Shown piece after piece: positions 1-10,573 of a stretch of 10,573 nt of DNA. A model generated the notes under the pieces. The model was not told the DNA's origin. It was given only the letters and a program-made list of their open reading frames with translations, and made no database searches. Position 1 is the first letter of the stretch; each line of letters opens with the position of its first letter. The stretch is from Thiohalobacter sp. (GTDB taxonomy: Bacteria > Pseudomonadota > Gammaproteobacteria > DSM-19610), in the NCBI GenBank assembly GCA_027010005.1, contig JALVCM010000260.1:1-10573 (forward strand). Direction: 5' to 3'. Made by a program: the position numbers and the translations under genes.

Positions 1-634
1 GAAACATAACCTTCCAGCCCTTCTGCCAGAAGCGCTTGCACCAGTCCAGATCCTCGCAGTGGAGAAAGTAGCCCTCATCGAGTGGGCCGACATCATCCAG
101 CGCCTCACGGCGGACGAACATGCAGGCACCCGAGATCGCGTCCACCTCGATGGGGTGCTCGGGCAGTGGCGCATCGACTTTGTTGATGCCGGCGCCGCGC
201 TTGCCGAACAGCGTGGAAAGGGCCGCCAGCGGCGTCGGTTCATCGCGCCGACAGCCGCGTTGTTCGGAGCCATCCTCGTTGAGAATGCGGGGGCCGCACA
301 TGCCGACATCGGGGCGGTGTTCCATGAATGTCATCAATCTCTCTATGCTTTCACACTGGATAATGCCGTCGGGGTTAAGGAAGAGTATGTAGGGAGTTCT
401 GGCAATAGGGAGGCAGTGGTTGTTGGCGACAGCAAAGCCTAAGTTTCGGCCATTTCGAATGATCTTTAAGCGTGGATCTTGTGGTAATGCTCGGAGGCTG
501 CTGTCACTGGAGCCGTTGTCTGAGATGACGATTCGAGAAACGGATGGGCATGAAAGCCCGGACTCCACGCAATCGCGTAAGAGTGAGCCCGTATTGAAGT
601 TGACGATGATGACCGTAACAGCAGGTTTGTTCAT
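1..634 (-). CDS. Family 2 glycosyltransferase, rhamnosyltransferase (WbbL) type, partial at left edge
   Basis: The reverse strand reads open from an ATG at 634 down to the window edge, giving the first 211 residues; the C-terminus lies outside. It is a GT-A fold family 2 enzyme that would add a sugar from a nucleotide donor to a lipid-linked glycan on the cytoplasmic face. Visible motifs are the opening strand VTVIIVNFNT (6-15), the donor-binding ISDNGSSDSS (37-46), NLGFAVANN (64-72), the metal-binding variant LNPDG (86-90), SGACMFVRREAL (168-179) and the acceptor/base region EDLDW (194-198). This set resembles WbbL-type rhamnosyltransferases, but the donor cannot be assigned. It is transcribed away from the export operon. 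The first ~103 codons are about 45-57% GC in sampled blocks, while the rest (below about position 325) is 62-70%, so the gene looks like a recombinant. The ribosome-binding site is weak (GGGACGGG just upstream). Confidence 0.88.
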   Translation of the reverse strand, partial: MNKPAVTVIIVNFNTGSLLRDCVESGLSCPSVSRIVISDNGSSDSSLRALPQDPRLKIIRNGRNLGFAVANNHCLPIARTPYILFLNPDGIIQCESIERLMTFMEHRPDVGMCGPRILNEDGSEQRGCRRDEPTPLAALSTLFGKRGAGINKVDAPLPEHPIEVDAISGACMFVRREALDDVGPLDEGYFLHCEDLDWCKRFWQKGWKVMF

Positions 635-1348: not shown

Positions 1349-2179
1349 TTGGATTCATATTCACCATTTTCGGTATCACCAAGATTCCTTTTAAGGAGTG
1401 TTTGGGAGAACCGTCAGTTGATAGCGCAACTGACATCAAGGGAGATAATTGGTCGATATCGTGGCTCAGTACTGGGTGTTTTCTGGTCGTTTGTTACCCC
1501 GGTGTTCATGCTCGCGATTTATACTTTCGTATTTAGCGTTGTGTTTAAGGCGCGATGGGGGTTGGCAGGGGGGGAGTCAAAGGCGGAGTTCGCACTGCTT
1601 TTGTTTGCCGGGCTTATCGTATTCAACCTTTTCTCAGAATGTCTGACTCGCGCACCTTCACTTATATTGTCGCATGCTACCTACGTAAAGAAAGTTGTTT
1701 TTCCGCTCGAGATCTTGCCATGGGTTAGCATGGGATCAGCCTTGTTTCATGCCGCTATCAGCTTGCTTGTATGGTTGATCGCTTATGGGGTGTTTTACGG
1801 TCATCCTCATGTTTCAGTGCTATTGCTGCCAGTTGTACTGTTCCCATTTGTTCTTTTGGTGATGGGGTTGTCTTGGTTTCTTGCGTCGTTAGGGGTTTAT
1901 CTGCGGGATATTTCAAATTTGATCGGAACGTTGTTGACGGTCTTGATGTTTCTGTCTCCAATATTTTACCCAGTTTCTGCTTTACCTGAAAAATACCGCG
2001 TATACCTATATCTGAACCCTTTGACCCCAGTCGTCGAGCAGGTTCGCAATATCCTATATTGGGGTGGTGGGGTCAATTGGGCTGCATATGTTTTGTATGC
2101 GCTGATGTCCCTGGCGGTAGCTTTGATGGGGTTTGTCTGGTTCCAAAATACCCGAAGAGGATTTGCCGATGTCCTCTGA
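1349..2179 (+). CDS. wzm: ABC-2 type polysaccharide export permease (Wzm)
   Basis: This is a 276-residue inner-membrane protein, the usual size for Wzm/KpsM/TagG permeases. With Wzt it would form the channel that moves undecaprenyl-diphosphate-linked glycan to the periplasmic face. Family signatures are REIIGRYRGSVLGVFWS (31-47), YVKKVVFPLE (112-121), the LRDI coupling segment (185-188), SPIFYP (203-208) and NPLTPVVEQVR (223-233). About six hydrophobic membrane spans are visible. The start is a TTG: an in-frame TGA at 1337-1339 excludes anything further upstream, no in-frame ATG precedes the conserved N-terminal signature, and GAGG (1338-1341) stands 7 nt before it. The non-ATG start may keep expression low. 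The stop overlaps the start of wzt by 11 nt. A G7 run occurs at 1568-1574. Confidence 0.93.
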   Translation: MDSYSPFSVSPRFLLRSVWENRQLIAQLTSREIIGRYRGSVLGVFWSFVTPVFMLAIYTFVFSVVFKARWGLAGGESKAEFALLLFAGLIVFNLFSECLTRAPSLILSHATYVKKVVFPLEILPWVSMGSALFHAAISLLVWLIAYGVFYGHPHVSVLLLPVVLFPFVLLVMGLSWFLASLGVYLRDISNLIGTLLTVLMFLSPIFYPVSALPEKYRVYLYLNPLTPVVEQVRNILYWGGGVNWAAYVLYALMSLAVALMGFVWFQNTRRGFADVL

Positions 2180-3518
2180 TGCTGTTATCAAGGTAGAGAA
2201 TCTGAGCAAATGTTACCAGATTTATGAGTCTCCCCGAGATCGTTTGAAGCAGTATATCATGCCTAAATTACGCTCCTTTTTTGGGGGGAAGGAGGTGCGG
2301 TACTATCGGGAGTTCTGGGCTTTGAAAGATGTGAGTTTCGAAGTTGGCAAGGGGCAGACGGTGGGGGTTCTTGGAAAAAATGGGGCGGGGAAGTCAACCT
2401 TGCTGCAGATTCTATGTGGAACTCTCAATCCAACCTCGGGGCGTGTCGAGGTAAACGGCCGAGTAGCAGCATTGCTTGAGTTGGGTGCAGGCTTTAGTCC
2501 GGAATTTACTGGGTTGGAAAATGTCTATCTTAATGGGCAGTTGCTTGGGCTTAGCAAAAAAGACATTGATAGCAAGATTGAGGAGATTCGTGAGTTTGCG
2601 GATATAGGGGATTTTTTCTATCAGCCGGTAAAGACCTATTCCAGCGGCATGTTTGCTCGGTTAGCTTTTTCTGTCGCAGTGCATGTCGACCCTGATGTCC
2701 TGGTTGTCGATGAAGCGCTAAGTGTGGGGGATTCATGGTTTCAGCACAAATCGATTGATCGCATGAAGCGCCTGATGTCAAATGGGTGTACGGTTTTATT
2801 TGTAAGTCACTCGATTGACTCGGTAAGAGCAATATGTGAAAACGCAATCTGGCTAGAGAATGGAAGGATTAGGCTTATTGGCGATTCGCGGTCGGTGACG
2901 AACGAGTATATGAATGAAGTGTTCATCGAGCACAACAGGATAACTCTTGCTGCGACGGGCAATCAGAAAGGTAAGAAAGGTAACGAGGGAGAAGGGCAGG
3001 ATTCGAACGACTCATGTTCTAGCCATGGAGCGCGTCGGCGGTTTCAATCGGCTGGGAGTCGTCTTGACGCACGGTCGGTTCTTGAGGTCAGGGAGGTATC
3101 GATCAGAGATGGTGATGGGGATAAAGTCGAGTTTCTGCGTCAAGGTGACCCGTTTACGATTATGGTAGATATTGATTTTCTTCAGAATGTTGAAGATGTC
3201 AGTGTTGGATTTGTTATCAAGGATCAGTTCGGGCAGGAACTCACCGGAGAAAGTTTGTTCAATAATTATAGAAAAAGTTTCCATTTTCAGGCTGGCGAGT
3301 CGGTCAAGGTATGTTTTTCTTCAACGATGCTTTTTCGCGGTGGGCAATCGTATTCTCTGGCGTTGCGTATTAACCAGGTTTCGGAGTGGGACCGAAGCGA
3401 TAACGTGCTGATCTATGCTGACGATCTTGCTGCCGTTATTGAAGTTGTTTCTGATGGCGAATCCCCGATGTGGTTCATGTTTAAGCAAGAGTTTTCCGTC
3501 GAAGTGGTTTATGGCTAG
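2169..3518 (+). CDS. wzt: ABC polysaccharide export ATPase with C-terminal glycan-binding domain (Wzt)
   Basis: This 449-residue protein is the ATP-hydrolysing partner of Wzm. The nucleotide-binding domain (about 1-250) has Walker A GKNGAGKST (69-77), the Wzt-family LLELGAGF segment (102-109), signature YSSGM (157-161), Walker B ending in D181-E182 and the switch histidine H214. A hydrophilic low-complexity linker rich in G, K, E, N and S (about 262-300) leads to a beta-rich Wzt_C-like domain (about 303-449). In E. coli O9a-type systems this extra domain recognises the modified non-reducing end of the glycan and so restricts export to finished chains. ATG 2169 is preferred over an in-frame ATG at 2133 because GAAGAGG lies 8 nt upstream and the protein begins in the family style (VIKVENLSKCY). 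The gene overlaps wzm by 11 nt and the next gene by 8 nt. It contains a T6G6 run (2277-2288). Confidence 0.93.
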   Translation: MSSDAVIKVENLSKCYQIYESPRDRLKQYIMPKLRSFFGGKEVRYYREFWALKDVSFEVGKGQTVGVLGKNGAGKSTLLQILCGTLNPTSGRVEVNGRVAALLELGAGFSPEFTGLENVYLNGQLLGLSKKDIDSKIEEIREFADIGDFFYQPVKTYSSGMFARLAFSVAVHVDPDVLVVDEALSVGDSWFQHKSIDRMKRLMSNGCTVLFVSHSIDSVRAICENAIWLENGRIRLIGDSRSVTNEYMNEVFIEHNRITLAATGNQKGKKGNEGEGQDSNDSCSSHGARRRFQSAGSRLDARSVLEVREVSIRDGDGDKVEFLRQGDPFTIMVDIDFLQNVEDVSVGFVIKDQFGQELTGESLFNNYRKSFHFQAGESVKVCFSSTMLFRGGQSYSLALRINQVSEWDRSDNVLIYADDLAAVIEVVSDGESPMWFMFKQEFSVEVVYG

Positions 3519-5016
3519 GTTGATTTTCTATACTGATGAAGCGTCTATGGCGCTTGTCACCGGTCGGAAACCCGTTGTGATACTTGTTGGTGGTGACTTT
3601 GGGTATGCTAATTTTGGGGATGTGCTGCAGCTGAAGAGCGTTGTCAATTTTTATCGCGCTCAAACAGATCTGAACCCAGTTCCAGTATATTCTCTAGAGG
3701 CTATTCCAGATTCGGGCTATGTCGATCGAATAAAAAAATTGATCGGTGTAGATGCTTTGCTTTTTTTGTCCGCTGAAGCTGTTGATGTTGCTCGTCTTGG
3801 GCTAATTCCTGTGCCTAGTATCTCATGCTTGAGTGTCGTTCATCTTTATGGCGGTGGTTATTTGAACGATCGGTGGGGAGAGTATGTTCTTGACGTGGCG
3901 GAATGCTTTTTGGATAAGAGTGAATGTATCACCTATCTTATTAGCGGACAACAGGTTGGAGAGAAAGTCAGGGCGAGACTGCTCGACCATATTGACAGAT
4001 TTCGACCTAGGCTTGTTGGGGTTAGGGATTTTGAGTCTCTCGATCGGCTTGAAAGTTGGGGTGTGCCCGCGCGGTTTTCGTTCGATGACGCCTATGAGCC
4101 GTTGCTTGATCTTGCGAATCAAGTTCCAAAGATAAGGAAGAATCGTGTTATTGGGCACATAAACCTCTCGCCCTATGCTTCTGACAGTGTCGGTGAGAAG
4201 GCCCAAATGCTAGTCGCTGCTTTTCGCGAGATCATGGTGCGTTATCCGGAACACGAGCTCGTGATGGTAAACGCATACAACGATAGGCGCTCCGCGGTAA
4301 TGGACTCGCTGGCGTCGATTGTGGAGCTCGAAAACGAGTTTCCATATAAGGATTACTGCGTTCTTGATCTCGTGGATGGGGCCTATTCTGGAAATATTTC
4401 TAGGCCTGAGTTGCTCTCGTCGGAGGTGGCCGTATCCTGCTCGTATCATGTCACGCTGTTTTTGCATATTGCAGGTGTGCCGTGCTGGTTGTTTGCGCAA
4501 AACGCGTATTATGACCAGAAAGCGGGGGCTTTAAATGGCATGGAAAGCTATGAGGAATTTCTTCAAAAACCGGTTATACCTGACTATTCGGAACGCATTG
4601 ATTTGCGGGAGGCATGGCTGAGGGAGCTTGGTAATGTAATTGAAGTCAGAGGTCCTGAGGTCGATGCAATAGCTTTATCGCTAGATGTGGATGCTATTGA
4701 TTCTCTTTCTCCCTTTAAATTTAAACCGCGGGGGCATGAGGCTTTGGAGCGTCAGCTTGCGGAGCAGGCGGAGCAGCTGCAGGAGTTGCGTAACTATTGT
4801 GACGATTTGCGCTCTTCCCTGCAGCAAAGTTTGGCTTACCAGGAGGAGCTTGAGCGATCGCGAAGGGCGCAGTCTGGGCAGATCGACGAGTTGCGTTCGT
4901 ATGTTGATTCTCTTGAAGCCAGAAGTAATGCGCTTGCTGTTGAACTTGATCAGGCTCATCGAATTCTGGGTTCACGCAAGGAGTTGATTAAATTCATTGT
5001 GCGGAGTCGAAGATGA
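3511..5016 (+). CDS. Polysaccharide pyruvyltransferase family protein with C-terminal coiled coil
   Basis: This 501-residue predicted cytoplasmic protein has a polysaccharide pyruvyltransferase domain (about 20-400), the family that moves enolpyruvate from phosphoenolpyruvate to form pyruvate ketals on sugars (CsaB, WcaK). Family landmarks are GGDFGYANFGD (27-37), YGGGYLND (113-120), VGVRDFESLDRL (169-180) and SYH-LFLHIAGVP near H313 (311-324). From about 408 to 485 hydrophobic residues recur with 3-4 spacing (L412, L416, L423, L426, L433, L437, L447, I458, L461, V465, L468, L475, L479) amid E, Q and R: about ten heptads of coiled coil. A basic amphipathic tail (KELIKFIVRSRR, 490-501) follows. 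ATG 3511 overlaps the wzt stop, supporting coupled translation; 3547 is an alternative start with no better ribosome-binding site. By position beside wzt it may cap the glycan. The family also contains members without pyruvyl transfer activity, so the reaction is inferred. Confidence 0.8.
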   Translation: MARLIFYTDEASMALVTGRKPVVILVGGDFGYANFGDVLQLKSVVNFYRAQTDLNPVPVYSLEAIPDSGYVDRIKKLIGVDALLFLSAEAVDVARLGLIPVPSISCLSVVHLYGGGYLNDRWGEYVLDVAECFLDKSECITYLISGQQVGEKVRARLLDHIDRFRPRLVGVRDFESLDRLESWGVPARFSFDDAYEPLLDLANQVPKIRKNRVIGHINLSPYASDSVGEKAQMLVAAFREIMVRYPEHELVMVNAYNDRRSAVMDSLASIVELENEFPYKDYCVLDLVDGAYSGNISRPELLSSEVAVSCSYHVTLFLHIAGVPCWLFAQNAYYDQKAGALNGMESYEEFLQKPVIPDYSERIDLREAWLRELGNVIEVRGPEVDAIALSLDVDAIDSLSPFKFKPRGHEALERQLAEQAEQLQELRNYCDDLRSSLQQSLAYQEELERSRRAQSGQIDELRSYVDSLEARSNALAVELDQAHRILGSRKELIKFIVRSRR

Positions 5017-7256
5017 ATAAGCTGTCAATCTGGATTCTTACCTCTGAGTTCCCTCCGATGTACGGTGGGGGGATCAGTACTTACTGTCATGAATCCGGAC
5101 TTGCATGGTCGATGTGTGGCCATAGGGTAAAGGTGTTTACGAGAGCAGATCCTGCCCAGGAGGGGCGGGCTGTCGAGGATATAGGGGAGCGGTATAGCGT
5201 AATTAGAGTCCCGATAGTCGCCGAACCAGCAATTCAGAATGCACTCGGGTTCTGGCATTTGATGTCATATTGTCTTGCGGATGAGGTTGTTCGTGAAATA
5301 CGAGAGAGAAATGATGCGCCTGACATGATCGAGGTTCAGGATTATGGTGCTCTCGGTTACTTTTTGCTGAAACGCAAACTCGCCGGCTGTGAAGAGTTGG
5401 TCTCTACAAAAATCGTTGTGTATACACATACCCCGGTATTCGAGCTTGTTAAGGTTAATCAGGAATCTTCTTATCTGTTTCCCAATTATTGGTTGGGTCA
5501 GTGTGAAAAATTTTGCCTTCAAGCAGCTGACTCCGTAATTAGTCCATCAAGATTTTTGAAAAGGCATCTTGAATCGTACTGTCGTGATGACATTAAGGTT
5601 ATTCCGTATCCGTTTTTTTTGGGGGGGGCAGTATCTTCAGCACCGAAACCCGTGCGGGAGCCAGAATTTGATTGTGTCTATGCAGGCAGGCTTGAGTATC
5701 GAAAAGGCGTGCTCCAATTGCTGGCAGCCTTTAAGGGTATATGGGATTCTGGAGAAAAGGTAACGCTGCATATGGTCGGAGGGGATACTCAGTGGGTGCC
5801 TCGAAGAACGAGTATGAAGAGTTATATAGAGAAGCTTTATTCTCGCTATATAAAGGATGGTTTGATCACTTTTAGTGATGCTGTTCCTCCTGACGTACTC
5901 CCGTCGGTATTTTCTTCAGGAAAAGTAGTTGTTATCCCTTCTATCTATGAAAATTTCCCATATGTTTGTATGCAGGCCATGGGGCTGGGTAACGTTGTTT
6001 TGGTTTCGGCTTCTGGGGGGCAGGCCGAAATGGTTGGGGGTGACGCATCTTGCGGCCTGGTTTTCGACTGGGATGAACCGGGGTCGTTTTCGAAACAGTT
6101 GAAACGACTTTTGAGGAAGTCTTCTGATGAGCTCGTGGCCATGGGAGACGCCGCGCGACGACGTATTTCGATGCTATGTAATTATGAGCGGTTTGTCGAG
6201 CGTCGAATTGATCACTTGAATCAAATCGGCGAGCATTCCGGTACTGCTCGAGGTAATTATCCTCGGGTTGGGGGGCGCGAGGGTTATGGGCGAGATCAAT
6301 TCTCTGGGGATGCGGGTATCTCGGGAAAATTGTCGGTTGTTGTGCCTTTCTACAACATGGGGCGCTATATCCTTGAGAGTGTAGAGAGTATAGACAATAG
6401 CTCATATCCTGACATAGAGATCATCATTGTTAATGATGGTAGTGATGATGAAAGCTCAGTGAAAGTTCTCGAACAACTGAGAAAGAGAGGTGGGCAAGTC
6501 AAAATCATTGATATAGACAATGCCGGGCTTGCGAATGCTCGCAACGTAGGAGCAAGGGCGGCTTCTGGTGAGTTCCTGGCTTTTCTCGACGCCGATGACT
6601 GTATCGAATCATTATATTACGAAAAATGTATTGGGCTTTTGACGCGGTATCAGAATATTTCGTTTGTTTATTCGTGGGTCAGATATTTTGGGGAAAGTGA
6701 TGCTGTTTGGATAAACTTTGATACCGAGTTTCCCTATCTCCTCGCGGGGAATATGTTGGCTGCATTTCAGGTGGTTAGAAGGAACGATTTCCTTGAGTTT
6801 GGTATTAACGACGAGGATATGATGTTCGGGATGGAAGATTATGAGGCTTGGTTGCGTATGGTTAGTAAGGGGTGTCATGGCGTGACCATACCTGAACCGT
6901 TAGTACGTTATCGTGTTAGAGATGATTCCATGGCGAGGCAATTCAACCGTAGTACTGTGATCTATATGTATGAACAAATGGTAAAGAAAAATAACGGTAT
7001 CTATAAGGAGTATGGGGACGAACTCTTTATGCTCGTCAACGCAAATGGCCCTGGTTATCTATGGAACAATCCAACGATAGCTTATCCTCCCCTTGCCTAT
7101 GCAGGGAGTAGTGAAGGGACGGGCGAGATGGGGGATGTCGGGTTTTCTATTGGTGAGATGATGCGATTGAAGCGAATTGTAGCGCATCCAGTGTTTTCGA
7201 GGCTGATCAGGTTTGCGCTGTCCGCTCGGTTAGATCGATGGTTTGGAGTTCGTTGA
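5013..7256 (+). CDS. Two-domain glycosyltransferase, GT4-GT2 fusion
   Basis: This 747-residue predicted cytoplasmic enzyme carries two glycosyltransferase modules. The GT4 (GT-B fold) module spans about 1-405: an N-terminal SEFPPMYGGG-ST loop (11-22), VYAGRLEYRKG (222-232) and the donor-site segment SIYENFPYVCMQAMGLG (310-326). In the last, the second glutamate of the usual E-x7-E motif is glutamine (E313, Q321). After a Gly/Arg-rich linker (about 406-438) comes a GT2 (GT-A) module: LSVVVPFYN (440-448), VNDGSDD (473-479), LDADD (525-529) and MEDYEAW (607-613), so its metal and base residues look intact. A basic amphipathic stretch ends the protein (718-747). The ATG overlaps the previous stop as ATGA, with GGAG 6 nt upstream. 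Two modules in one chain suggest successive linkages of one repeat. A T8G8 tract lies at codons 201-206. Confidence 0.9.
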   Translation: MNKLSIWILTSEFPPMYGGGISTYCHESGLAWSMCGHRVKVFTRADPAQEGRAVEDIGERYSVIRVPIVAEPAIQNALGFWHLMSYCLADEVVREIRERNDAPDMIEVQDYGALGYFLLKRKLAGCEELVSTKIVVYTHTPVFELVKVNQESSYLFPNYWLGQCEKFCLQAADSVISPSRFLKRHLESYCRDDIKVIPYPFFLGGAVSSAPKPVREPEFDCVYAGRLEYRKGVLQLLAAFKGIWDSGEKVTLHMVGGDTQWVPRRTSMKSYIEKLYSRYIKDGLITFSDAVPPDVLPSVFSSGKVVVIPSIYENFPYVCMQAMGLGNVVLVSASGGQAEMVGGDASCGLVFDWDEPGSFSKQLKRLLRKSSDELVAMGDAARRRISMLCNYERFVERRIDHLNQIGEHSGTARGNYPRVGGREGYGRDQFSGDAGISGKLSVVVPFYNMGRYILESVESIDNSSYPDIEIIIVNDGSDDESSVKVLEQLRKRGGQVKIIDIDNAGLANARNVGARAASGEFLAFLDADDCIESLYYEKCIGLLTRYQNISFVYSWVRYFGESDAVWINFDTEFPYLLAGNMLAAFQVVRRNDFLEFGINDEDMMFGMEDYEAWLRMVSKGCHGVTIPEPLVRYRVRDDSMARQFNRSTVIYMYEQMVKKNNGIYKEYGDELFMLVNANGPGYLWNNPTIAYPPLAYAGSSEGTGEMGDVGFSIGEMMRLKRIVAHPVFSRLIRFALSARLDRWFGVR
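5613..5628 (+). repeat. T8G8 homopolymer pair within the GT4-GT2 gene
   Basis: Eight T followed directly by eight G encode FFLGG (201-205). Runs of this length are candidates for slipped-strand mispairing. Loss of one base would bring in a stop at 5761-5763, and gain of one base a stop at 5669-5671. Either would truncate the protein to about 250 or 220 residues and remove the whole GT2 module. Confidence 0.75.
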
Positions 7257-7361: not shown

Positions 7362-8297
7362 ATGCGTTGCTTAGTCCTTGGTGGAGGGGGGTTTTTGGGA
7401 GCACATCTTGTGTCCAAGTTGCTAGCGGCCGGGCATCAAGTCGTAAGTTATGGGCGCCATGCTTCCTATCAAAACCTGATATCAGAAGGGCTTGATATTT
7501 CTTGTGTTACCGGTGATTTTTCGACTGAGAATCGATGGAATGAGATGCTCGAGGGAGTCCAGGTTTGTTATCACCTCATCTCGACAACGCATCCAAAGTC
7601 GTCGAATCTCGATCCCATTGCCGATGTTTCGGGAAATGTTTTAGGTACATTGAGGTTGTTGGAAGCTGCACGGAATTATAGTGTCCGAATTGTATTTACA
7701 TCGTCGGGAGGGACTGTGTATGGCTTGGTGGATGATGGTCTGATATCCGAGAAACATTCTACTAACCCTTTGTGTTCCTATGGGATAACAAAACTGTCCA
7801 TTGAGAAATATCTGCGGCTATATAATGAACTGCATGGCGTTAAGTCAATAATTCTTCGTATCGCAAACGCGTATGGGGAAGGGCAGCGTATTGATAGTCC
7901 TCAGGGTGCTGTTGCTGTATTTATGGGGCGTGTGTTGAGAGGGCATACGATCGATTTGTGGGGGGATGGGTCGGTTGTGCGAGACTATGTCTATGTAAAA
8001 GATATTGTTAATGCAATGTTATTTGCATCGGAATATGGGGGGCGGTCTTCAATTTTCAATATCGGATCGGGCGTGGGGACGTCGTTGGAAGAGTTGTTGC
8101 ATTTGATTGAACGGGTGACCGGTCAGGAAGCGGATGTAGTCCACCATCCGTCACGTGGTTTCGACGTGCCAGTGAATGTACTTGATATTCAGAAGGCTCG
8201 AGACGAGTTAGGCTGGATCCCGCAGACGTCTTTGCTGGATGGTTTGAGGAATAGTGAAAAATGGATGCGTAGGCAGTTATCTATATCGGAGTCGTAA
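7362..8297 (+). CDS. NAD-dependent sugar-nucleotide epimerase/dehydratase (UDP-glucose 4-epimerase-like)
   Basis: This 311-residue protein is an extended short-chain dehydrogenase that would interconvert or reduce a nucleotide sugar in the cytoplasm. The Rossmann fold opens with LGGGGFLG (6-13), the GxxGxxG NAD-binding loop. FTSSGGTVYG (112-121) supplies the catalytic serine, and SYGITK (139-144) supplies the Y140-x3-K144 pair. LRIANAYG (165-172) and GDGSVVRDYVYVKD (201-214) are typical of GalE-like 4-epimerases. It lacks the SSIKVNGE-type segment of WbpK/WbpV C4-reductases, so I favour a 4-epimerase, but the substrate is not decided by sequence. The length is normal. AAGGGA stands 4 nt before the ATG. 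It sits between the glycosyltransferases and the WbpL/WbpM pair, where donor-sugar genes are common. A G6T5 run lies near its start (7386-7396). Confidence 0.85.
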   Translation: MRCLVLGGGGFLGAHLVSKLLAAGHQVVSYGRHASYQNLISEGLDISCVTGDFSTENRWNEMLEGVQVCYHLISTTHPKSSNLDPIADVSGNVLGTLRLLEAARNYSVRIVFTSSGGTVYGLVDDGLISEKHSTNPLCSYGITKLSIEKYLRLYNELHGVKSIILRIANAYGEGQRIDSPQGAVAVFMGRVLRGHTIDLWGDGSVVRDYVYVKDIVNAMLFASEYGGRSSIFNIGSGVGTSLEELLHLIERVTGQEADVVHHPSRGFDVPVNVLDIQKARDELGWIPQTSLLDGLRNSEKWMRRQLSISES

Positions 8298-8409: not shown

Positions 8410-9309
8410 ATGGTAAAAGTTTGCGCAAGCATCGTAGTTTATCAGGCAGACAGGGATGTGCTAAGCGCGCTCGTTGCTGCTTTGCTATCGCAAGTGGATC
8501 TGGTGCTGATTGTTGATAATGACATGAAACCTGAAGGGTTGCCGTGCTCGCAACATCATCGTGTGCATTACCTGCCGCAGCGTAGAAATATTGGAGTGTC
8601 TGCCGCTCATAATATTGCATTTTCAAGGGCGAAGCGGGAAGGGTGTTCCCACGTTGTTACTTTCGATCAGGACAGTATGGTTCCTCAAGGTTTCGTAGAT
8701 GGCCTGCTTTCTATGGAGCGGTCGCTTTTGGACCGGGGAATCATGGTCGGCTGTGTGGGGCCTCGTTTTAGTGATCCGAGGGGAGGGGTTGGCGCTCCGT
8801 TTATTCGGCTGGCTGGTTGGAAGATTGAAAAAATAGACTGCCGCAACTGGCATGATCGGTATGTCCGTGCTGATTACTTGATAACCTCCGGCTGTCTCAT
8901 CAGTTTGTCTACCATTGAACTGGTAGGGCCCTTCGATGAAGGGTTTTTCATTGATTATGTCGATATCGAGTGGGGGCTGCGTGCCGTGAGTAGGGGTTTC
9001 CAGAATTTTGGTGTTTGTGGAGTGACTATGAGTCACCCCATTGGGGATGCGCCGTTGGTTATTCCGCTGATTGGCAAGAAGGTTCCTTTACATAGCCCTC
9101 TGCGACACTATTATCATTTCAGGAATGCGGTGCATCTCTACAAACGTCCGTATGCGAGAACGTTGTGGGTACTCAATGATGGCATTCGTCTTGTGATCAA
9201 GTTTTTCGTCTACTCTCTTTTTGCGCCAACTCCCTTTAGGCATTTTCGGATGATGTCTCTTGGTATTTGGCATGGGATCATTGGCGTAACAGGTCCGTTC
9301 AAAGGGTAG
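8410..9309 (+). CDS. Family 2 glycosyltransferase, rhamnosyltransferase type
   Basis: This 299-residue GT-A enzyme resembles the RfbF/RhlC-type rhamnosyltransferase group. Motifs are the first strand VCASIVVYQAD (4-14), IVDND (34-38), RRNIGVSAAHNIA (58-70), the metal-binding FDQDS (85-89), a GCLIS acceptor loop (161-165), FDEGFFIDYVDIEW (175-188) and YYHFRNAVHLYKRPY (234-248). The last lies in the membrane-associating C-terminal part, which the family usually has. It would add a sugar, plausibly a 6-deoxyhexose, to the growing lipid-linked chain; the donor is inferred from family resemblance only. No dTDP-rhamnose genes are in the window. The ATG is preceded by a modest ribosome-binding site (AAGTGG, 6 nt upstream). 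It ends 5 nt before the likely start of the next gene, so the two are probably co-translated. Confidence 0.85.
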   Translation: MVKVCASIVVYQADRDVLSALVAALLSQVDLVLIVDNDMKPEGLPCSQHHRVHYLPQRRNIGVSAAHNIAFSRAKREGCSHVVTFDQDSMVPQGFVDGLLSMERSLLDRGIMVGCVGPRFSDPRGGVGAPFIRLAGWKIEKIDCRNWHDRYVRADYLITSGCLISLSTIELVGPFDEGFFIDYVDIEWGLRAVSRGFQNFGVCGVTMSHPIGDAPLVIPLIGKKVPLHSPLRHYYHFRNAVHLYKRPYARTLWVLNDGIRLVIKFFVYSLFAPTPFRHFRMMSLGIWHGIIGVTGPFKG

Positions 9310-9314
9310 ATTCT

Positions 9315-10199
9315 GTGTATATGGCAGTAGCATTGATGACTGTGCCGACATCTTGGTTGCTGCTCCGTCTTCTTGTTATGGCAGTGGAGTTACTGCCGAC
9401 CGATGTGCCCAACCAGCGTTCATTGCATGACCGAGCTATTCCCAAAGCAGGAGGGGTGGTCATTGTATTGGTGGCGTTGGTTGGAGTTGGGTTGGTGTTG
9501 GGCTTTGATCATCCGTCTGTTCGCCCGCTTGTTTCTGGCGCTCTGCTTCTTGCGGTGGTGTCTCTATGGGATGATTATGGGCATGTCTCTCCATTGCTAA
9601 GATTGTTAATTCAGGGGAGTGCTTCTCTGATTCTGGTAAGCGCTATCTACTCGGTATCGCCACCCTGGCTCAACGCTGCTCTCGTGGTTCTTGCTGTATG
9701 GGCTATCAATCTCTACAACTTTATGGATGGGATGGATGGCCTTGCTGCTTCGATGGCAATTGTCGGGTTCTCTGCGTTGGGGATGCTTGGATTTCTTGGT
9801 GATGATCTAGGATACGCCTGTGCGGCGTGGTCTGTTGCTGGTGCGGCTGCGGGGTTCCTCGTTTTCAACTTTCCGCCCGCCCGAATCTTCATGGGGGACG
9901 TCGGCTCTACCTTCCTAGGTTACATGATGGCCGCTGCGTCGTTGTGGGGGGTACAGCATCAGATCTTCCCCTTCTGGGCGCCACTGCTGATTTTTGCTCC
10001 ATTCTGGCTCGATGCTACGATCACTCTCCTCCGCCGTCTGCTTCGTGGCGAGCGTGTCTGGGAGGCGCACCGCAGCCATTTCTACCAACGGGCCGTGCTG
10101 GCGGGCGTGCCTGTCCGGCGGGTGCTGCTGGTCGAGACGCTCCTCATGCTGGGCTGTTCGGCCGTAGCGATTGCGGTGGTGCCGATCACGCGGGGATAG
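9315..10199 (+). CDS. wbpL: Undecaprenyl-phosphate N-acetylhexosamine-1-phosphate transferase (WbpL/WecA-like)
   Basis: This 294-residue polytopic inner-membrane enzyme of the MraY/WecA family starts glycan assembly by moving an N-acetyl sugar 1-phosphate from UDP to undecaprenyl phosphate. Conserved sites are DVPNQRSLHDRAIPKAGG (30-47), the catalytic DD (86-87), NLYNFMDGMDGL (132-143), IFMGDVGST (191-199) and the cytoplasmic HRSHFYQR loop (252-259). The GTG at 9315 is chosen because AAAGGG lies 8 nt upstream; ATG 9321 has 14-nt spacing, and an ATG at 9267 would run far into the previous gene. It is shorter than WbpL of P. aeruginosa (around 340 residues by memory) and ends soon after one more hydrophobic span, so the C-terminus may lack a span. 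The last ~180 bp are 67-73% GC against about 47-58% upstream. The sugar specificity (GlcNAc, FucNAc or QuiNAc) is not readable. Confidence 0.92.
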   Translation: MYMAVALMTVPTSWLLLRLLVMAVELLPTDVPNQRSLHDRAIPKAGGVVIVLVALVGVGLVLGFDHPSVRPLVSGALLLAVVSLWDDYGHVSPLLRLLIQGSASLILVSAIYSVSPPWLNAALVVLAVWAINLYNFMDGMDGLAASMAIVGFSALGMLGFLGDDLGYACAAWSVAGAAAGFLVFNFPPARIFMGDVGSTFLGYMMAAASLWGVQHQIFPFWAPLLIFAPFWLDATITLLRRLLRGERVWEAHRSHFYQRAVLAGVPVRRVLLVETLLMLGCSAVAIAVVPITRG

Positions 10200-10349
10200 T
10201 GCCCGCAGGGGTATGCGACCCGCTCCATGTTTTAACCATTGATTGACAATTTAGTCCGCCGTGAGCGGGTTTTATCGGGGATTTGTATTACAATTTGTAA
10301 CCATTGCTTGTCGCCGATTCTGGCAAGTCTGTGGAAGTCTCTGATTATT
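10200..10349 (+). other. Intergenic region between wbpL and wbpM with promoter-like elements
   Basis: This 150-bp gap contains a perfect -35 hexamer TTGACA (10243-10248) but no good -10 at 16-18 nt; TTTTAT (10270-10275) is 21 nt away. TACAAT (10289-10294) is a good -10 without a partner -35. TTACAA-T-TTGTAA (10288-10300) is a perfect 6-bp palindrome overlapping that -10. Together these suggest that wbpM has its own promoter, possibly with an operator, but the exact elements cannot be fixed. Confidence 0.3.
10253..10273 (+). terminator. Weak candidate intrinsic terminator after wbpL
   Basis: AGTCCGC (10253-10259) can pair with GCGGGTT (10265-10271) around a five-base loop. This gives seven pairs, two of them G-U, followed by a short T run. 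The stem is short and overlaps the region of the TTGACA hexamer, so partial read-through into wbpM is likely. Confidence 0.3.
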
Positions 10350-10573
10350 ATGGATAAACCTGCCGAAAAGCTGCGGACCCTGTCGGGGTTCTCAAAGCGT
10401 TTTCTTGTTGCGGTGCTGGATATTGCCCTGCTGCTGGTCGCATCGTGGGCGTCTTTCGCCATCCTCTACGCCGATTTCTTCGTTCCCAGCAGGACGCAAC
10501 TGCTGCTAAGCCTGCTGGGGGTTGCGATTACGATCCCCGTCTTTGCCCAGGCGGGGCTGTATCGCGCCGTGAT
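10350..10573 (+). CDS. wbpM: WbpM/CapD-like nucleotide-sugar 4,6-dehydratase, N-terminal part only
   Basis: The first 74 codons are present and the window ends in the gene. The family comprises large (about 600-residue) inner-membrane proteins that convert UDP-GlcNAc to a 4-keto-6-deoxy sugar, the entry to FucNAc, QuiNAc and di-amino sugars. What is visible fits the N-terminal membrane region: SKRFLVAVLDIALLLVASW (15-33) followed by a second span from about 48 and the typical FAQAGLYRAV ending (65-74). The catalytic dehydratase domain lies beyond the window, so the call rests on this region and on position after wbpL, the standard order in Pseudomonas O-antigen loci. GGAAG lies 12 nt before the ATG, rather far. 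Base composition matches the GC-rich flank, suggesting a core gene shared between serotypes. Confidence 0.8.
   Translation, partial: MDKPAEKLRTLSGFSKRFLVAVLDIALLLVASWASFAILYADFFVPSRTQLLLSLLGVAITIPVFAQAGLYRAV

What the first reader, a model, noticed from the sequence alone, without database searches (positions are those of the whole stretch)
3511..5016. Pyruvyltransferase with a long coiled coil as a candidate cap-and-ruler chain terminator
Seen: a pyruvyltransferase-like domain followed by about ten heptads of coiled coil (412-482) and a basic amphipathic tail, encoded immediately after and overlapping a Wzt that has a glycan-binding domain. Known: in E. coli O9a, WbdD adds a terminal methyl phosphate, its coiled coil sets chain length as a ruler, and the Wzt C-terminal domain reads the cap. 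Inference: here the cap would be a pyruvate ketal, with the coiled coil of one polypeptide as ruler. I do not know of a described ABC-exported O-antigen terminated this way. The short ruler (roughly 11 nm at 1.5 Å per residue) would predict short chains.
Basis: partly seen in the sequence, partly recalled or inferred. Interest (0 to 1): 0.78.

Follow-up and report, generated by a model that had tools for sequence, protein, structure and literature searches.

The report
Pyruvyltransferase-headed cap-and-ruler chain terminator
This gene looks like the stop-and-measure enzyme of a bacterial surface-sugar export system, one that would mark the finished chain with pyruvate; experts have already suggested that such systems exist, but the sources read here report no proof.

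Summary
The observation largely holds. Window 3511-5016 encodes a 501-residue protein with a PF04230 (polysaccharide pyruvyl transferase) head, then one predicted helix (408-500) with an unbroken heptad register. It overlaps a Wzt with a C-terminal sugar-binding domain (CBM) and, downstream, a two-module glycosyltransferase gene. The tail is basic but not amphipathic beyond shuffles. In 102 family rows the head keeps the pyruvyltransferase motifs and (but for one row) three of four PEP-binding residues; the fourth, an arginine, is serine in all 102.

New support for the cap idea: in 7 loci from several phyla the Wzt CBMs near this head form their own class (40.9% identity within, 17.8% to 28 control Wzts), while the ATPase domains barely separate (56.5 and 49.3). 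In control loci, 10 of 11 coil-bearing genes next to such a Wzt have a methyltransferase head. So the likely reading is a WbdD-like terminator with a pyruvyl head.

The idea is in print: Kelly et al. 2023 name two bacteria as candidates, and Klebsiella O1b is a proven pyruvate-capped, ABC-exported O antigen (no ruler). No chemistry, cap position or ruler effect is shown here; six related loci have transporters without the CBM.

The parts
1349..2179 (+). Wzm-like ABC transporter permease (276 aa)
   Evidence: PF01061 2e-30; TTG start of the ORF list, exact start uncertain
2133..3518 (+). Wzt: ABC ATPase plus C-terminal carbohydrate-binding domain; first ATG in frame at 2169
   Evidence: PF00005 7.2e-22 and PF14524 Wzt_C 1.6e-17; start positions
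3075..3515 (+). Wzt CBM region, a member of a CBM class found near the same pyruvyltransferase-like head in other phyla
   Evidence: alignment A3; leave-one-out 188.0 bits against 44.6 for the best control
3511..5016 (+). pyruvyltransferase-like head plus coiled coil (P0001, 501 aa)
3511..4710 (+). GT-B-like catalytic head, residues 1-400; N34-G36-D37, R172-S176, H313 and K337 match pyruvyltransferase motifs and PEP-binding residues, S311 replaces the usual Arg
   Evidence: motifs from PMC10629545 section 9 and CsaB residues from PMC10435577 passages
4723..4980 (+). heptad-repeat helix, residues 405-490
   Evidence: 0 of 5000 shuffles; helix 408-500 in the model
5013..7256 (+). GT4-GT2 two-module glycosyltransferase (747 aa), candidate polymerase; start overlaps the stop of the terminator gene
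   Evidence: PF00534/PF13692 and PF00535; overlap
7362..8297 (+). NAD-dependent sugar epimerase/dehydratase family protein
   Evidence: PF01370 7.6e-48; best NCBIfam model GalE, below its cut-off
8410..9309 (+). GT2 glycosyltransferase, rhamnosyltransferase-like
   Evidence: TIGR01556 186.3 bits, cut-off 200.55, so below it
9267..10199 (+). WecA/WbpL-like polyisoprenyl-phosphate sugar-phosphate transferase (chain initiation)
   Evidence: PF00953 4.9e-31; ECA_wecA model 84.5 bits, below its cut-off

Best explanation
The gene encodes a chain terminator of an ABC-exported polysaccharide (probably O antigen) that works like WbdD but with a pyruvyltransferase head. The GT4-GT2 enzyme encoded next to it would extend the lipid-linked chain. 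The head would add a pyruvate ketal from PEP to the non-reducing terminal sugar and so stop growth. The coiled coil would hold the head away from the membrane-bound polymerase and so set a minimum chain length. The CBM of the overlapping wzt would bind the cap and license export by Wzm/Wzt. Shown by computation: the head family, its conserved PEP-site residues, the coil, the gene order, and a CBM class that tracks the head. Inferred: the pyruvyl chemistry, terminal placement, recognition of pyruvate by the CBM, and the ruler function.
For: Head: PF04230 matches 15 of 17 domain members at E <= 0.1, and no other family matches more than one. The three motifs reported as conserved across pyruvyltransferases (NxGD, RxxxS/T, H) are kept: N34, G36, D37, R172 and H313 in 102 of 102 rows, S176 in 101. 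K337, the likely partner of the PEP-binding lysine of CsaB, is kept in 101 (CsaB R148, H308, K328). Coil. Position: head directly after a CBM-bearing Wzt in window, L007, L008, L013 and L016; L011 fuses GT2-GT4-head directly after wzt, and L005 has wzt, GT2-GT4, head. Cap reader: 7 of 7 Wzts near the head have their nearest CBM in another of the 7, against 4 of 7 for the ATPase; within-class CBM identity 40.9% (24-63) against 17.8% (9-26) to 28 controls; held-out profile scores 88.9-203.6 against at most 47.7 bits for a control; 0 of 10000 label shuffles reach the excess of CBM over ATPase clustering. A head-only search of 369 genomes of the class, the sample that gave the controls, finds the head only in the own genome. 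Same slot: of 20 control loci fetched (of 28), 11 next genes carry a coil, and 10 of those 11 have a methyltransferase head. A motif SxSWRxT is in 39 of 102 head-family rows and in 8 of those 11 control genes; it lies after the coil in the 8 and in 34 of the 39, the other 5 having no coil above the cut-off.
Against: The second PEP arginine of Pvg1p and CsaB (R337, R306) is serine in 102 of 102. Neither Pvg1p (5AX7) nor WbbZ (6X1L) is among the 50 rows shown by either structure comparison; UDP-GlcNAc 2-epimerases and GT-B glycosyltransferases lead. Six related loci (L002, L003, L004, L006, L009, L064) have a transporter ATPase without a CBM within reach of the head, so CBM reading is not general; in four of them (L002, L003, L006, L009) the ATPase gene is on the other strand and may belong to another system. 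44 of 102 rows have no coil above my cut-off, among them three of the seven CBM-linked loci: L008 (best 1.39), L011 (1.42) and L016 (1.10, sulfotransferase domain instead) against a cut-off of 1.5. P0004 and P0006, in the window's own clade, have a full head and almost no coil. P0001 lacks the SxSWRxT tail. 9 of 20 control loci have no coil in the next gene. Chain length, cap structure and acceptor are unknown.
Confidence: 0.58

Rival explanations
1. A pyruvyl cap without ruler function: as with WbbZ of Klebsiella O1b, the enzyme decorates the end, and the coil only makes oligomers or tethers the enzyme to the polymerase or membrane.
For: WbbZ caps part of the chains and is not needed for chain length or export (passages of PMC10629545 and PMC11231755). 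Coil-less heads exist in the window's own clade, and three of seven CBM-linked loci have no coil above my cut-off.
Against: The Klebsiella O1/O2 transporter lacks a CBM (passage), whereas this Wzt has one of a class that tracks the head. Coil and slot match methyltransferase terminators.
Confidence: 0.22
2. A terminator with another cap: the head is a GT-B-like transferase that adds a sugar or another acid, not pyruvate.
For: Arg to Ser at the second PEP site in 102 of 102; structure comparison led by epimerases and GT-B glycosyltransferases. Klebsiella O4 uses an unexpected Kdo transferase (abstract and passages, PMC11231755).
Against: PF04230 is the only family shared by several members, and R172, H313 and K337 are kept. 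WbbZ's own structural hits, after Pvg1p, were also dominated by UDP-GlcNAc 2-epimerases.
Confidence: 0.12
3. Repeat-unit decoration: the enzyme pyruvylates a residue in every repeat, and the CBM reads that or something else.
For: Candidate pyruvyltransferases that modify capsular polysaccharides are listed (PMC10629545 section 9).
Against: Coil, overlap with the CBM-Wzt gene and a head-specific CBM class are the marks of end capping. In vitro, WbbZ with PEP shortened the products of WbbY (passage).
Confidence: 0.08

Closest known systems
WbdD of Escherichia coli O9a (Klebsiella O3)
   Same: Catalytic head, then a C-terminal coiled coil; works with a Wzt that has a CBM reading the cap; separate polymerase gene
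   Different: Head is methyltransferase plus kinase; its C-terminal region (residues 460-708, passage of PMC3482155) is about 249 residues against about 101 here; function proven there
WbbZ of Klebsiella pneumoniae O1b
   Same: Pyruvyltransferase acting on an ABC-exported O antigen; same three motifs; proven terminal pyruvate
   Different: Described as not required for chain length or export, with a transporter without a CBM; here coil and CBM are present, and the residue matching Pvg1p R337 is Ser
[quoted passage not shown]
   Same: Same proposed function in print, unproven there as well
   Different: Their sequences were not seen here, so family identity is untested; one relative in this set (P0018) is labelled Pseudomonas fluorescens
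Multi-module terminators: Klebsiella O7 ORF6 and O12 WbbB (passages of PMC11231755)
   Same: Terminator, coil and polymerase modules in one chain; L011 here fuses GT2-GT4 to the pyruvyl head
   Different: Caps are methylphosphate and Kdo; in L011 the GT modules precede the head and the coil is below my cut-off

Membership tests
PF04230 polysaccharide pyruvyltransferase family | Pfam score above the curated cut-off | tested here: met
   30.9 bits against 25.3; 15 of 17 domain members match at E <= 0.1
PF04230 polysaccharide pyruvyltransferase family | Motifs NxGD, RxxxS/T and His conserved across known enzymes (PMC10629545 section 9) | tested here: met
   N34, G36, D37, R172, H313 in 102 of 102; S176 in 101 of 102
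PF04230 polysaccharide pyruvyltransferase family | PEP-binding Arg, His, Lys (CsaB R148, H308, K328) | tested here: met
   R172 and H313 in 102, K337 in 101 of 102; equivalence by motif order and spacing, not by a structural superposition
PF04230 polysaccharide pyruvyltransferase family | Second PEP arginine (Pvg1p R337, CsaB R306), known from models and docking; not shown to be required of every member | tested here: not met
   Ser in 102 of 102; a PF04230 protein of a same-genus genome has the Arg (L120)
PF04230 polysaccharide pyruvyltransferase family | Closest fold is Pvg1p or WbbZ | tested here: inconclusive
   Neither is among the 50 rows shown; the domain-only model was still unfinished
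PF04230 polysaccharide pyruvyltransferase family | PEP-dependent pyruvyl transfer | not testable with these tools
   needs an enzyme assay
WbdD-type cap-and-ruler terminators | Extended coiled coil joined to the terminating enzyme | tested here: met
WbdD-type cap-and-ruler terminators | Partner Wzt with a CBM | tested here: met
   PF14524 1.6e-17, overlapping genes
WbdD-type cap-and-ruler terminators | CBM specific for the cap | tested here: inconclusive
   CBM class tracks the head in 7 of 7; binding itself not tested
WbdD-type cap-and-ruler terminators | Membrane-associated amphipathic C-terminal helix | tested here: inconclusive
   basic, but moment reached by 1381 of 2000 shuffles; one 14-residue window on a low-confidence tail
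WbdD-type cap-and-ruler terminators | Methyltransferase or kinase head (defines WbdD itself, not the wider class) | tested here: not met
   head is PF04230; so it may work like WbdD but is not a WbdD homologue
WbdD-type cap-and-ruler terminators | Chain length follows coil length; polymerase recruitment | not testable with these tools
   needs LPS gels and variants

The most novel reading that the evidence does not exclude
There is a scattered, unproven class of ABC-exported glycans ended by a pyruvate-type cap. Its head is one of several interchangeable heads (methyltransferase, pyruvyltransferase) set on a common coil-and-tail frame, and the Wzt CBM switches with the head while the Wzt ATPase does not. 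Head and CBM class occur together in Pseudomonadota, Planctomycetota, Campylobacterota and a Gram-positive Cohnella. Within the window's own clade the part after the head runs from 44 to 338 residues, so rulers would have changed length strongly among relatives.
Probability: 0.45. Interest if true: 0.7.

Novelty: new member of a known kind. Interest (0 to 1): 0.52.

Why it matters
Pyruvate as a cap that controls chain length and export has been named as a possibility, without biochemical proof in the paper read. This locus gives a compact test case (an overlapping wzm-wzt-terminator-polymerase block), named residues to test, and a CBM class that should share a ligand. If true, it adds a cap chemistry to those established for cap-and-ruler systems (methyl, methylphosphate, Kdo), and the natural series of coil lengths would test the ruler model outside Enterobacteria.

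Tried and rejected
Profile with coil included (A1) over 369 genomes of the class: 24 matched, but outside the own genome only in profile positions 392 and later, that is coil cross-matches (up to 3 candidates a genome scored). A head-only profile (A2) over 369 genomes of the class then matched only the own genome. Search of PDB sequences with the protein and the head profile: no relative. AcrF1, SMC and Mis12 hits look like chance or coil matches. Plasmid and phage records: no match. A paper on P. protegens O antigens holds none of five terms on pyruvyl, ABC transporter or chain length (find only, PMC10715155). An alignment of four same-genus PF04230 proteins first used wrong reading frames; redone. 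The first CBM comparison used 14 of 28 controls because minus-strand loci were skipped; redone with all 28. Structure comparison did not show 5AX7 or 6X1L. The domain-only model had not finished. The nine control genes without a coil were not scanned with Pfam. Papers not held: Mann, Kimber and Whitfield 2019 (title seen in a reference list), Whitfield 2020, Hagelueken 2015, Williams 2017. Literature searches. The coiled-coil matrix was recalled from memory.

Full report
What is there. On the plus strand it carries wzm (1349-2179), wzt (2133-3518, first ATG 2169), the gene in question (3511-5016), a GT4-GT2 glycosyltransferase (5013-7256), a sugar epimerase/dehydratase (7362-8297), a GT2 (8410-9309) and a WecA/WbpL-like initiator (9267-10199). 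wzm, wzt, the terminator candidate and the GT4-GT2 gene overlap one another in turn.

Coil. One heptad register runs through residues 405-490, and the model has one helix 408-500. With my scan, 58 of 102 rows have at least 28 residues above the cut-off and 44 have none. The part after the head runs from none to 410 residues (102 in the window); in the window's own clade (support 100/98) it is 102, 338 (P0002), 174 (P0003), 47 (P0004) and 44 (P0006). Some coils are internally repetitive, for example P0002 at a 35-residue and P0056 at a 21-residue offset.

Other architectures. L011 joins GT2, GT4 and the head in 1209 residues; L014 joins a GT2 and the head, with an end cut by the contig; L016 and L017 carry a sulfotransferase domain after the head.

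Neighbourhood. Among 21 loci (window, L002-L020, L064), a transporter ATPase is visible in 13: with a CBM in 7 (window, L005, L007, L008, L011, L013, L016) and without in 6 (L002, L003, L004, L006, L009, L064). In L002, L003, L006 and L009 it lies on the other strand, some 6 to 7 kb from the head. The other 8 show none, several being cut short. In the tree the CBM-linked heads lie on several deep branches, some of them weakly supported, and the CBM label needs at least two changes.

Cap-reader test. If the CBM reads the cap, CBMs should follow the head and not the ATPase. The seven Wzts near the head were compared with the 28 other Wzts that match the CBM profile at E <= 0.001 in 369 genomes of the class; choosing the best CBM matches as controls works against the test. 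CBM identity is 40.9% within the seven and 17.8% to controls; ATPase identity is 56.5% and 49.3%. The nearest CBM is in another of the seven for 7 of 7, the nearest ATPase for 4 of 7. Held-out CBM scores are 88.9-203.6 bits, against at most 47.7 for a control. No control locus matches the head profile, and a head-only search of 369 genomes of the class finds it only in the own genome. Limits: seven loci, shared descent of some operons (the ATPases also lean the same way), and L016 is clearly more distant.

Same slot, other heads. For 20 of the 28 controls the neighbourhood was fetched. The next gene has a coil in 11 and none in 9. Pfam finds a methyltransferase in 10 of the 11, in five of them with glycosyltransferase modules, and DUF4214 in one. 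A motif SxSWRxT follows the coil in 8 of the 11. It occurs in 39 of 102 head-family rows (after the coil in 34; the other 5 have no coil above the cut-off) but in only 12 of 154 control ORFs of 200 or more residues, 8 of which are these same genes. P0001 lacks it.

Distribution. It is rare and scattered, as expected of surface-glycan genes. The own genome, which is incomplete, has one PF04230 match, this one.

Known or new. The cap-and-ruler rule is established for WbdD and WbbB, and coil-bearing terminators are described as its marker (abstract and passages of PMC11231755). Terminal pyruvate on an ABC-exported O antigen is established for Klebsiella O1b, where it is not needed for length or export. 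[quoted passage not shown] The census it cites (Mann, Kimber and Whitfield 2019) is not held and was not read; I recall that it predicts new cap chemistries. So the function proposed here is a published hypothesis, and this locus is a further candidate with added evidence. I did not see the CBM co-segregation or the serine substitution in what I read; the searches were made, in an open-licence library only.

Noticed in passing
L016:8956-10758 and L017:9001-10806: The pyruvyltransferase-like head is fused to a sulfotransferase domain (PF17784) instead of a coil; L016 follows a CBM-bearing Wzt. Perhaps a second cap or tail chemistry.
   Followed up: partly
L011:6871-10500: One 1209-residue protein joins GT2, GT4 and the pyruvyltransferase-like head, directly after wzt.
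   Followed up: partly
P0004, P0006, P0007: Full heads with almost no coil; P0004 and P0006 lie in the window's own clade (P0007 was not in the tree). Their gene neighbourhood could not be seen.
   Followed up: partly
L002, L003, L004, L006, L009, L064: Heads near transporters whose ATPase lacks a CBM; in several the head gene directly follows a GT2-GT4 gene (L002, L004, L064 by Pfam): capping without a CBM reader, or a different use of the cap.
   Followed up: partly
L100-L119: SxSWRxT motif after the coil is shared by methyltransferase terminators and many of this head family: a possible common docking or membrane tail.
   Followed up: partly
window 2-634 (-) and 10239-10573 (+): GT2 gene on the minus strand cut by the left end, and an ORF cut by the right end; the polysaccharide cluster is probably incomplete here.
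   Followed up: no
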